A DNA stretch of 64,000 bases from Candidatus Chlorohelix allophototropha. GTDB taxonomy: Bacteria > Chloroflexota > Chloroflexia > Chloroheliales > Chloroheliaceae. The stretch lies in NCBI RefSeq assembly GCF_030389965.1, contig NZ_CP128399.1, positions 186,001 through 250,000 on the forward strand, given 5' to 3'. The notes under the pieces are model-generated. The model worked only from the letters and a program-made list of their open reading frames with translations, did no database searches and was not told the origin of the DNA. Positions 16,627-55,717 of the stretch are shown here, in pieces; the stretch's first letter is position 1, and each line of letters starts with the position of its first letter. The translations under genes and the position numbers were made by a program.

Positions 16627-16885
16627 GTCCGCAAATGGCTCCTTTGTTACAAAATTCTCAAGTATCGGGAATTATAACCCTTACGGCGAGATTTTGCATG
16701 CGGGTAAAATCCAATTCTTTTTGCTAAGCGCAACTTCTAATTAATTGCTTAACTTCACACTAAAGTTGTGACGCATTTTATAATTATTCAGCTACTCGGA
16801 CTGGTATAGTCATAGCAGTTAACTAATACTTATTACTCTCTATTTTTATTTATTTTCCTCGTTAGTACCCAGAGGAGCGTACAAC

Positions 16886-17623
16886 ATGACTAACCAAACC
16901 GGACAAATCACCAAGCCGCAAATCATCCAATCTATAAATAATACACGGCAACTGCCGAGCTATAATTACCCACAGCTAAACCAGCCTAATTATTATTATG
17001 CGCAGCAATATCATCGACATCCACAGGCATATAATTACCTACCTTACCAATCTGTACACTCGATGCTGGTACGACGTATGAAAAAGCCTTCGATTAATTA
17101 CTTTTACCTTGCGGTCGCGGTTGGCGGTAGCTTGGTTACAATTTGCCCGTTCCTGCCCTGGATTGATTTCTTCATGTCTAAAGGGGTTTCAAGCGCAAAT
17201 GGGTTAGGTATGTTCAGCAATATGAGCGGTACTGCCCCGGACTTTGGCGCAATTCACGGCATACCTGTTTTAATTGCCGGGTTGGTAGTAATGTCTTTGG
17301 GTTTTGGTGGGTTGATGGTTAGTAAGAAAGGCTATTCTGGACTGCTTATCGGTGCAAGTGTTTTCAATACCAGTACGATGCTTTACAAAATGGTTGATAT
17401 TACCGGATTGGTGGAAAAAGGTAGTTATCAGGGTATTCCGGTGAAGATGGATTTTGGGTTGTATATGGGCGTAGTTGGGTCGATGATAACGTTGGTGGCA
17501 AGCGTGTTGGCGATGGCTTACTGCATCTCTCGCTCTAAAAAGAGCATTGGCGAGGATATGAAGGAAGTAGCTGAGGGAATCGGTGAAGGCTTCAAACTTA
17601 TGGGCGGGCTTGGCGGTAAATAA
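16886..17623 (+). CDS. Uncharacterised membrane protein with Gln/Tyr/Pro-rich N-terminus
   Basis: The 245 residues start at an ATG with GAGGAG about 8 bases upstream. Residues 1-70 are rich in Asn, Gln, Tyr and Pro and look disordered. Four hydrophobic helices follow (about 73-95, 113-140, 147-165 and 190-215), then a short charged tail with a Lys/Arg patch and a Gly-rich end. The pattern resembles small bacterial membrane proteins with a disordered cytoplasmic head; I do not recognise a family. A TATAAT lies at 16779-16784 about 100 bases upstream. It stands alone and ends at a strong bidirectional terminator. Confidence 0.8.
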   Translation: MTNQTGQITKPQIIQSINNTRQLPSYNYPQLNQPNYYYAQQYHRHPQAYNYLPYQSVHSMLVRRMKKPSINYFYLAVAVGGSLVTICPFLPWIDFFMSKGVSSANGLGMFSNMSGTAPDFGAIHGIPVLIAGLVVMSLGFGGLMVSKKGYSGLLIGASVFNTSTMLYKMVDITGLVEKGSYQGIPVKMDFGLYMGVVGSMITLVASVLAMAYCISRSKKSIGEDMKEVAEGIGEGFKLMGGLGGK

Positions 17624-53455: not shown

Positions 53456-54234
53456 GCACTACAGTACCCCTATTAAAAAAAGAAATGCTAGAGCAATGGC
53501 GCACCAATAAACTGATAATTGCCTTTGTAGCTTTTGTAATAACGGGTTTGCAAGGTCCGGTAATTGCTAAAATTTTGCCCGATATAATAAAAAATGCCAG
53601 CGGTAGCATGAGCGGTATGCAGATTATTATTCCAAAACAAACTAGCCTAGATGCAATTTTATCATTTTTCAATAGTATGGCTACTATGCCTGCGCTGATA
53701 ATGATTTTGCTGGCGATGGGTTCAATTGCCGGAGAGCGCGAAAGAGGTACGCTGGTTTTTATGCTCACTAAACCGGTAAGTCGCACCAGTGTAATACTGG
53801 CAAAATATTTCACTTATCTGGCGGTGGTTATTGGCGCAACTCTGGTAAGCGCGCTGGTATCAGGTTATTACACAATATTACTGTTTGATAGCAATTTTGA
53901 ATTTGGCAATTATTTGCTGTTAAACCTGACAATGATAGTATTTGAGGCTTTTCTCCTTGCAATAATAATTCTAGCCAGTAGCCTTTTCAAAAGCGGGATT
54001 GCGGCAGGGGGCATCAGTTTGCTGACAGTGTTAGTTTTTACCACTGTTATACAATTTTTGCCGAGCTATCAAAAATATTCTCCACAAGCTGTATTTGACC
54101 CCACTTTTGGTAGAGAATTGATGACCGGAGTTGCGCCACTTTCAGATTTGTTGTTGCCAAATCTGGTCGGGATAGCTCTATCGGCGCTGGTATTGGCAGT
54201 TGCTTGCTTTGCTTCAGAACGTCGCGAAATATAA
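53452..54234 (+). CDS. ABC-2 type transporter permease
   Basis: The 260-residue protein has six hydrophobic segments (about 20-40, 60-90, 110-130, 150-175, 180-205 and 230-255) and the loop GERERGTLVFMLTKPVSRTS, the family signature that links it to NosY-like permeases. It would form the export channel with the ATPase encoded just before it. Terminated by a hairpin. Confidence 0.9.
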   Translation: MSTTVPLLKKEMLEQWRTNKLIIAFVAFVITGLQGPVIAKILPDIIKNASGSMSGMQIIIPKQTSLDAILSFFNSMATMPALIMILLAMGSIAGERERGTLVFMLTKPVSRTSVILAKYFTYLAVVIGATLVSALVSGYYTILLFDSNFEFGNYLLLNLTMIVFEAFLLAIIILASSLFKSGIAAGGISLLTVLVFTTVIQFLPSYQKYSPQAVFDPTFGRELMTGVAPLSDLLLPNLVGIALSALVLAVACFASERREI

Positions 54235-54258
54235 AAAAGGTCATTTTGATAGTTACCT

Positions 54259-54296
54259 ACCTCAGCCAGGTGCAATACTTGGCTGAGGTTTTATTT
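54259..54296 (+). terminator. Intrinsic terminator of the ABC operon
   Basis: ACCTCAGCCA (54259-54268) pairs perfectly with TGGCTGAGGT (54280-54289), followed by TTTATTT. Confidence 0.93.
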
Positions 54297-54573
54297 CAAA
54301 TGTGGAATCACCCCAAGCCTTAGTGCCGTTCCGGTTCGGTTTTCTCCTCTCCTTCGATTCTTAATATAGCGAAATTGCCTAGGTCGCTATAAACTGCCGC
54401 TCCACTGATTTAAATTATCTCCGCAAAATATTGTGAAAAATTAAACTTAATCATTATAATGCAAAAATACACATATCTTAATTAATTGCTAAACGGCTAT
54501 GTAGCCGTGAGAAACAGGCATGCAGCAAACGGCGCTATATATTTGCACTTTACCAAAGGGATAATCTATATTA

Positions 54574-54699
54574 TCACAATTACTTTGTGAAATAGCGTTC
54601 TAAATTTAGACAAAATGTGAAAATTCGCACTTTGTTGATTAATCACAATCATTTTGTATAATTATTTTACAAGTTCGCCGGATGCTGTGCAATTTCACA
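54574..54699. promoter_or_regulatory. Cluster of TCACAA/TTGTGA-like operator repeats
   Basis: Four related sites lie within 126 bases: TCACAA-N5-TTGTGA (54574-54590, perfect arms); TGTGAAAATTCGCAC (54616-54630); TCACAA-N5-TTGTAT (54643-54659), which lies in the promoter spacer and overlaps the -10; and TGTGCAATTTCACA (54686-54699). The same arms and 5-base gap recur, which suggests binding of one dimeric regulator several times. The regulator is not identified. Confidence 0.55.
54635..54662 (+). promoter_or_regulatory. Promoter ahead of the small membrane protein gene
   Basis: TTGATT (54635-54640), a 16-base spacer and a perfect TATAAT (54657-54662) place the start near 54669, giving a leader of about 175 bases before the ATG at 54845. 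An operator-like repeat sits across the spacer and -10. Confidence 0.6.
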
Positions 54700-54844
54700 C
54701 AAACTGCAAATCCCCGGAATTTTTCGGAAAAGCGAGCATTTATAGATACGGTTGGAGTAAAATACCCGGCGCTGCTCATTAAACCGTAACAGTTTTAACC
54801 TCTGCGATATTTCAAGGAAGAAACTAAGGAAAGGATTTGCCGAA

Positions 54845-54970
54845 ATGAATAAACTTCGCACTCGCCCGGATTTGGTCATCGCTCTGTGTATTACGATTCT
54901 TGCTATCATTTTCGCATTGATTATGCTTGTGACCTATATGCCCGGCTTGCCTTACATAAAGAACTACTAG
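54845..54970 (+). CDS. Small single-helix membrane protein (41 residues)
   Basis: The frame starts at an ATG with AAAGGA nine bases upstream and ends at TAG 54968-54970. It has a basic start (MNKLRTRPD), one hydrophobic helix (about 10-31, LVIALCITILAIIFALIMLVTY) and a short tail (MPGLPYIKNY). Its own promoter, long leader, ribosome site and terminator support a real gene. I do not recognise a family; the topology would put the tail outside the cell. It is short enough to be missed by standard gene callers. Confidence 0.7.
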   Translation: MNKLRTRPDLVIALCITILAIIFALIMLVTYMPGLPYIKNY

Positions 54971-54996
54971 ATTCACTGGTAGTAATAAGAAATTTG

Positions 54997-55030
54997 AGAG
55001 CGGTAGCCCGTTGGCTCCGCTCTTTTCTTT
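54997..55030 (+). terminator. Intrinsic terminator after the small membrane protein gene
   Basis: AGAGCGG (54997-55003) pairs with CCGCTCT (55017-55023), with an inner AGCC/GGCT stem, followed by TTTCTTTT. Confidence 0.85.
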
Positions 55031-55111
55031 TCCCTTTTTGGCGCTTGATGCTAAAATAGCAGATATGTGCCTGAGTTAATATTTATCCGGTTTCTTCAAA
55101 GGGATTTGTTG

Positions 55112-55717
55112 ATGAAAATTTTGCCTGAACCGATTACCCGGCTGATAGATGAATTGAACAAGCTACCCACTATTGGACCTAAAACCGCTTCTCGTCTCGC
55201 TTTTTATATCTTGCGCGAACCGAAAGACGATGCCGAAGCGTTGGCTCGCGCTATACGAGATGTCAAAGAGCATATAACCTATTGTTCAGTGTGTTACAAC
55301 CTCAGCGATGGCGAACTCTGCACCGTTTGTAGCAGCCGAGAGCGCGATCGGAGTGTGCTGTGTGTGGTGGAAGACCCGCTGGATGTGCTGGCTATCGAGA
55401 AAACGCATGAGTTTAACGGGATGTACCATATCCTGCACGGTCATATTGACCCGCTGAATAATGTAGGTCCTGAAGACTTGCGTATCCGAGAGCTAATCAA
55501 CCGGGTCAAATTGAACACTGGTGAAATCAAGGAAGTAATTCTGGCGCTGAACCCTAGCGTAGAAAGTCGTCCTACCGCCCATTACTTGCATCGCCAACTT
55601 GTACCAACCGGAGTTCATCTAACGCAACTGGCAACCGGCTTACCCGCAGGTGGCGATTTAGAATATGCCGATGAAATTACTCTTTCCAATGCGCTAAAAG
55701 GGCGTAGATCAATTTAG
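55112..55717 (+). CDS. recR: Recombination mediator RecR
   Basis: The 201 residues have all RecR features: the helix-hairpin-helix LPTIGPKTASRLAFY near residue 20, the C4 zinc finger (CSVCYNLSDGELCTVC, about 56-71), a Toprim domain (VLCVVEDPLDVLAIE...GMYHILHGHIDPLNNVGPEDL) and the final TQLATGLPAGGDLEYADE. It helps load RecA with RecF and RecO at gaps. The ATG at 55112 has AAAGGG upstream and gives the usual length; an ATG at 55067 lacks a ribosome site. It is nine bases ahead of the next gene, though the two look unrelated in function. Confidence 0.98.
   Translation: MKILPEPITRLIDELNKLPTIGPKTASRLAFYILREPKDDAEALARAIRDVKEHITYCSVCYNLSDGELCTVCSSRERDRSVLCVVEDPLDVLAIEKTHEFNGMYHILHGHIDPLNNVGPEDLRIRELINRVKLNTGEIKEVILALNPSVESRPTAHYLHRQLVPTGVHLTQLATGLPAGGDLEYADEITLSNALKGRRSI

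What the first reader, a model, noticed from the sequence alone, without database searches (positions are those of the whole stretch)
54574..54970. Repeat-controlled 41-residue membrane protein gene
Four TCACAA/TTGTGA-type inverted repeats lie within 126 bases, one across the promoter spacer and -10. They precede a 175-base leader and a 41-residue single-helix protein with its own ribosome site and terminator. This looks like a tightly controlled small regulator or toxin-like membrane peptide that standard gene calling would miss.
Basis: partly seen in the sequence, partly recalled or inferred. Interest (0 to 1): 0.55.

Follow-up and report, generated by a model that had tools for sequence, protein, structure and literature searches.

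The report
Orphan 41-residue membrane protein gene
A short stretch of bacterial DNA very probably holds a small gene for a 41-residue one-helix membrane protein with an operator-like promoter, but no relative of it was found, so its function is open and the find is modest.

Summary
The anatomy is real. Window 54635-55031 holds a sigma-70-like promoter match, a leader of about 175 bases, an AAGGA ribosome site, a 41-codon ORF (54845-54970) and a strong terminator hairpin (z -3.66). The ORF shows the host's codon bias (synonymous null about 0.01). Of 1500 small-ORF starts in regions called intergenic in 444 kb of the same chromosome, only it combined ATG, SD, a strongly hydrophobic helix and a terminator. 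TGTGA/TCACA pentamers are denser here than in any of the other 185 intergenic regions. But only one of the 'four inverted repeats' is an exact dyad; the rest are degenerate and of mixed polarity, and over the whole window the motif is at chance, so no regulon is defined. A tidier description: -35 and -10 each sit inside a TTGT...ACAA dyad, and the -10 dyad recurs (26 of 27 bases) upstream of a cofD-like gene. No convincing relative of the peptide was found in 60 related genomes, 399 genomes sampled across the phylum (partly the same), or the phage, plasmid, viral and genome-contig collections. No antisense RNA signal supports a type I toxin. Best reading: an orphan, probably repressor-controlled single-pass membrane protein of what looks like 'Ca. 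Chlorohelix allophototropha'.

The parts
54574..54590 (.). exact everted dyad TCACAATTACTTTGTGA, candidate operator
   Evidence: only TCACAA-N5-TTGTGA in the genome; 54573-54593 is repeated at 54642-54662 with 81% identity
54616..54631 (.). degenerate TGTGA-N6-TCACA-like dyad (2 mismatches)
54632..54648 (.). dyad TTGTTGATTAATCACAA enclosing the -35 hexamer
   Evidence: with the next dyad the only pair of TTGT-N9..11-ACAA within 60 bases in 444 kb
54635..54662 (+). promoter-like TTGATT-16-TATAAT
   Evidence: 10 of 12 consensus matches
54654..54672 (.). dyad TTGTATAATTATTTTACAA enclosing the -10; 54646-54672 recurs with 26 of 27 bases upstream of a cofD-like gene at C1:1425877
54685..54702 (.). 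degenerate TTGTGA-N6-TCACAA-like dyad downstream of the inferred start of transcription (3 mismatches)
54669..54844 (+). leader (start inferred), not more structured than shuffles
   Evidence: z +0.52
54831..54835 (+). ribosome site AAGGA
   Evidence: spacing 9
54845..54970 (+). 41-aa single-helix membrane protein ORF
54996..55031 (+). intrinsic terminator: hairpin and U-rich tail
   Evidence: z -3.66
54431..54460 (+). possible upstream second promoter whose -35 is TTGTGA
   Evidence: consensus match only

Best explanation
A free-standing gene of about 360 transcribed bases makes a 41-residue single-pass membrane protein (N-terminus MNKLRTRPD probably cytoplasmic by the positive-inside rule, which I recall and did not test; hydrophobic core about residues 9-30). 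Dyads cover the -35, the -10 and their flanks, so a repressor probably keeps it off until a signal releases it; the mRNA is then translated from AAGGA and the peptide acts in the membrane, most likely as a stress-type small membrane protein that adjusts a membrane process or complex. Shown in sequence: promoter match, SD, ORF, codon bias, terminator hairpin, dyads. Inferred: expression, repression, topology, function.
For: Best coding score of the six frames of its stretch and ninth of 487 short intergenic ORFs per codon. Codon score near the 37th percentile of 1071 windows of 41 codons from called genes; 3% of 2530 intergenic windows reach it. Synonymous-codon null 0.0096 and 0.0117, while the antisense 80-aa ORF (0.50) and the leader ORF (0.65) show no bias. 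2 of 1500 small-ORF starts pass ATG+SD+helix and only this one also passes the script's terminator test. Terminator z -3.66. One helix, residues 7-38, mean pLDDT 79.3, folded without an alignment. Operator cluster and paired dyads. The -10 dyad shared with the cofD-like upstream region, E 8.1e-5.
Against: No convincing relative in any collection searched. No expression data. The promoter is only a consensus match, and such matches are near chance number here. The GGA of the SD is mostly paired in the predicted mRNA. The motif is not enriched over the window, and no regulator is identified. Cut-offs and motifs were chosen after seeing the locus.
Confidence: 0.55

Rival explanations
1. Type I toxin: a membrane-damaging peptide kept off by transcriptional repression and an antisense or divergent RNA, as in tisB-istR1 or timP-timR.
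For: Size, single helix, long leader and operator-like control resemble TisB/TimP (PMC7667032, abstract and passages). Weak match to Pfam Holin_9 (putative holin), E 0.011, under its cut-off.
Against: No minus-strand promoter-like site in 54692-55120 (the one at 54691-54664 overlaps the start of the leader but reads away from it; beyond 55120 was not scanned). Three hypothetical divergent RNAs of 150 bases pair with the leader no better than shuffles (fractions 0.30, 0.595, 0.515). Leader not specially folded; no match over a family cut-off and none significant in PHROGs; single copy in the genome.
Confidence: 0.12
2. Accessory single-helix subunit of a membrane energy complex (oxidase, b-c complex or the unusual type I reaction centre of this organism), controlled by a redox regulator.
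For: The genome's sizes match the phototroph 'Ca. Chlorohelix allophototropha'; it has a Rex homologue; the operators are TTGT..ACAA-like; a non-significant match to an aa3 oxidase subunit model, E 0.74.
Against: That match is 10.2 bits against a cut-off of 43; the two neighbours are an ABC permease and recR; no relative in the sampled genomes of the phylum; canonical Rex site not met.
Confidence: 0.13
3. The transcript is a small RNA and the ORF is accidental.
For: No protein conservation found; promoter and terminator alone would fit an sRNA.
Against: Codon bias, SD and helix together; no Rfam match at the gathering score in the window, best sub-threshold match in 54235-55111 24.4 bits against 58.7 needed; leader not structured.
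Confidence: 0.15
4. The repeats are chance in an AT-rich promoter region and bind nothing (compatible with a real gene).
For: Mixed polarity and spacing; window-wide counts at chance; few other copies; post hoc choice of motif.
Against: Local density reached by 0, 1 or 5 of 3000 shuffles, by count used, and top of 186 intergenic regions; paired dyads on -35 and -10 unique in 444 kb; 26/27 recurrence.
Confidence: 0.25

Closest known systems
YohP-type stress-induced small membrane proteins (E. coli, 27 aa; PMC12719787, passages read)
   Same: under 50 residues, one helix, presumably conditional expression
   Different: no sequence relation was tested or claimed; induction not shown here; operator-like promoter here
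tisB-istR1 / timP-timR type I modules (PMC7667032, abstract and passages read)
   Same: small membrane protein behind a long leader (timP ORF at +145 to +261)
   Different: no antisense or divergent RNA signal found here
Rex operator TTGTGAA-N4-TTCACAA (consensus recalled; PMC5355995 and PMC6018154 seen only in the search listing)
   Same: TTGT..ACAA dyads over promoter elements; the genome has a Rex homologue
   Different: dyads here are 17 and 19 bases instead of 18; best canonical site has 4 mismatches and six of 186 intergenic regions hold a better one
HcpR/CRP operator TTGTGA-N6-TCACAA (PMC545781, passages read)
   Same: same half-site; overlap with the -10 as described for repressed HcpR targets
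   Different: best match 3 mismatches; the exact dyad here is everted

Membership tests
Type I toxin-antitoxin | small hydrophobic membrane peptide | tested here: met
   (by sequence and prediction)
Type I toxin-antitoxin | antisense or divergent RNA antitoxin | tested here: inconclusive
   no minus-strand promoter-like site in 54692-55120 (sigma-70 consensus only); no pairing better than shuffles for three hypothetical divergent RNAs
Type I toxin-antitoxin | toxicity on expression | not testable with these tools
   needs expression in a laboratory strain
Type I toxin-antitoxin | match to a known toxin family | tested here: not met
   Pfam best Holin_9 E 0.011, 16.4 bits against cut-off 25.3; NCBIfam best E 0.74; PHROGs best E 0.015, unknown function; PADLOC not scanned
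Rex regulon | Rex regulator in the genome | tested here: met
   PF06971 at C2:1224879, 70.1 bits
Rex regulon | canonical 18-base Rex operator at the promoter | tested here: not met
   4 mismatches at best; none of the 4 window sites with up to 3 mismatches lies here, 3.9 expected by chance
CRP/HcpR regulon | TTGTGA-N6-TCACAA or TGTGA-N6-TCACA site | tested here: inconclusive
   best 3 and 2 mismatches; the exact short form has 5 places in the genome against 2 for the backward control, none here
Known small membrane protein family | sequence relatives | tested here: not met

The most novel reading that the evidence does not exclude
A lineage-specific single-helix subunit or regulator of the organism's energy-converting membrane machinery, possibly its unusual type I reaction centre, switched by a redox repressor that occludes both promoter hexamers.
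Probability: 0.06. Interest if true: 0.6.

Novelty: new member of a known kind. Interest (0 to 1): 0.22.

Why it matters
ORFs under 50 codons are generally omitted from annotation (PMC7667032, abstract) and some prove to be stress proteins or toxins. A well-delimited candidate in a phototroph with a novel reaction centre is easy to test by RNA-seq or tagging, but by itself it is one of many orphan small genes that any genome may hold.

Tried and rejected
Conservation by position: I looked by eye upstream of recR in 5 of the 38 other genomes in which one search found it (39 of 41 with the own): the four same-family genomes and one of the same class. The neighbours differ and no similar small ORF was seen among the printed ORFs. 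I first read the wrong side of recR for loci on the minus strand and repeated it. One search read some minus-strand loci of weak peptide hits on the wrong strand; nothing is drawn from it.

DNA conservation of 54400-55060 in the 5 genomes of the family: only short matches outside the own genome, best E 0.023. Of three looked at, two lie inside long ORFs and one (L068, resembling the ribosome-site stretch) in apparently non-coding sequence; all judged chance.

Shared elements with other upstream regions: ungapped matches of 54400-54700 to the 185 other intergenic regions have top scores (16.0, 15.5) like those of reversed-sequence controls (15.0, 15.5), though more pass the threshold (36 and 30 against 16 and 20). 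The 16755 region shares TAATTAATTGCTWAAC, a TCACA-N7-TGTGA dyad and a TATAATTATT -10, but at other spacings, so only a lead. Matches to the 19-base dyad at up to 3 mismatches number 13 against 7 for the control, four of the 13 being this site and the cofD-like site on both strands; several others lie just upstream of ORFs, so part of the 27-base match may be mere -10 likeness.

Weak peptide hits judged chance: G021 E 0.0105 (stop codon inside) and 18 others up to E 1; four E. coli/E. fergusonii plasmids at E 0.5.

Rex: 50 places at up to 2 mismatches genome-wide against 27 for the reversed control, so a Rex regulon may exist, but not by this test at this promoter.

Literature: no paper in the library holds 'chlorohelix' with 'small protein' and 'transcriptome'; the search for Chloroflexus small open reading frames gave one unrelated paper and that for Rex with Chloroflexi three, all seen only in the listing and not used.

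Full report
Where it is. The window is C1:186001-250000 of a 6,086,194-base genome in 5 contigs, C1 being 2,961,161 bases. This fits the closed genome of 'Ca. Chlorohelix allophototropha' L227-S17 (two chromosomes, the first of 2.96 Mb, one chromid, two plasmids; PMC10972752, passages read). That is an inference from sizes. The locus lies between an ABC permease gene ending at 54234, followed by a terminator-like hairpin at 54259-54289, and recR from 55112 (Pfam).

The gene. Promoter match TTGATT-16-TATAAT at 54635-54662 (6 promoter-like sites in 886 bases against 3.1, sd 2.0, in shuffles, so weak evidence alone), leader of about 175 bases with no special fold (z +0.52), AAGGA nine bases before ATG, 41 codons at 54845-54970, and a hairpin with a U-rich tail at 54996-55031 (z -3.66). 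With a codon model from the same chromosome the ORF scores like genes (37th percentile of 1071 windows of 41 codons; 3% of 2530 intergenic windows, not required to be open, reach it). With the protein held fixed, random synonymous codons reach the score in about 1% of draws. The antisense ORF 54667-54909 and the leader ORF 54682-54789 show no such bias. Of 1500 small-ORF starts in regions called intergenic in 444 kb, 2 pass ATG, SD of 4 or more and hydropathy of 2.0 or more, and only this one has a terminator by the script's test. The gene caller was crude, nested starts count apart, and the cut-offs were set with the locus known. AlphaFold without an alignment gives one helix, 7-38, mean pLDDT 79.3.

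The repeats. Three exact hexamers TTGTGA/TCACAA within 126 bases occur only here in 444 kb, but over the window such hexamers are at chance (degenerate dyads likewise). TCACAA-N5-TTGTGA occurs once in the genome; the looser TCACA-N7-TGTGA at 6 places, against 0 for the backward control. The 'four repeats' differ in polarity and spacing. A tidier reading is that the -35 lies in TTGTTGATTAATCACAA (54632-54648) and the -10 in TTGTATAATTATTTTACAA (54654-54672); this is the only pair of TTGT-N9..11-ACAA dyads starting within 60 bases of each other in 444 kb (chosen after seeing it). The second recurs upstream of a cofD-like gene (26 of 27 bases, E 8.1e-5; the name is my reading of its sequence, no family scan was run). 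Dyads across both promoter hexamers argue for repression. A Rex homologue is present but the canonical Rex site is not met.

Relatives. In 60 other related genomes 19 have a match at E up to 1, best 0.0105 with a stop inside; of the four same-family genomes one has E 0.66 and three none. None at E up to 0.01 in 399 other genomes sampled across the phylum (some are the same as). None by the scans of genome contigs and viral contigs, none in phages; four plasmids at E 0.5; no PDB chain at E up to 10. A 41-residue query has little power, the scans need an exact 8-residue stretch and may leave out the own genome, and no same-genus genome was listed among the relatives.

Toxin question. Pfam Holin_9 matches at E 0.011, below its cut-off. 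No minus-strand promoter-like site lies in 54692-55120, and three hypothetical divergent RNAs pair with the leader no better than shuffles. So a toxin is neither shown nor excluded.

Judgement. The gene is probably real, the operator plausible, the toxin or regulator label unsupported. It is a new orphan member of a known kind, small single-helix membrane proteins.

Noticed in passing
L052 1501-1533 (C1:1425877-1425909): 27-base stretch 26/27 identical to the peptide promoter, inside a longer imperfect palindrome upstream of a cofD-like gene (name by eye).
   Followed up: partly
window 16738-16790: TCACACTAAAGTTGTGA with a TATAATTATT -10 and TAATTAATTGCTTAAC, upstream of a 245-aa membrane-protein-like ORF (16886-17623).
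   Followed up: partly
L099 (C2:1262776-1262826): Two exact CRP-like sites TGTGA-N6-TCACA 23 bases apart, and a third degenerate one, beyond a chromate-transporter-like gene (name by eye).
   Followed up: no
L108 (C1:546709-546726) and L113 (C2:1224879): Rex-like operator (2 mismatches) beside what looks by eye like cydA, and a Rex homologue; Rex-operator-like sites number 50 against 27 in the control.
   Followed up: partly
window 54431-54460: A second promoter-like site whose -35 is TTGTGA itself, about 200 bases upstream of the main one.
   Followed up: no
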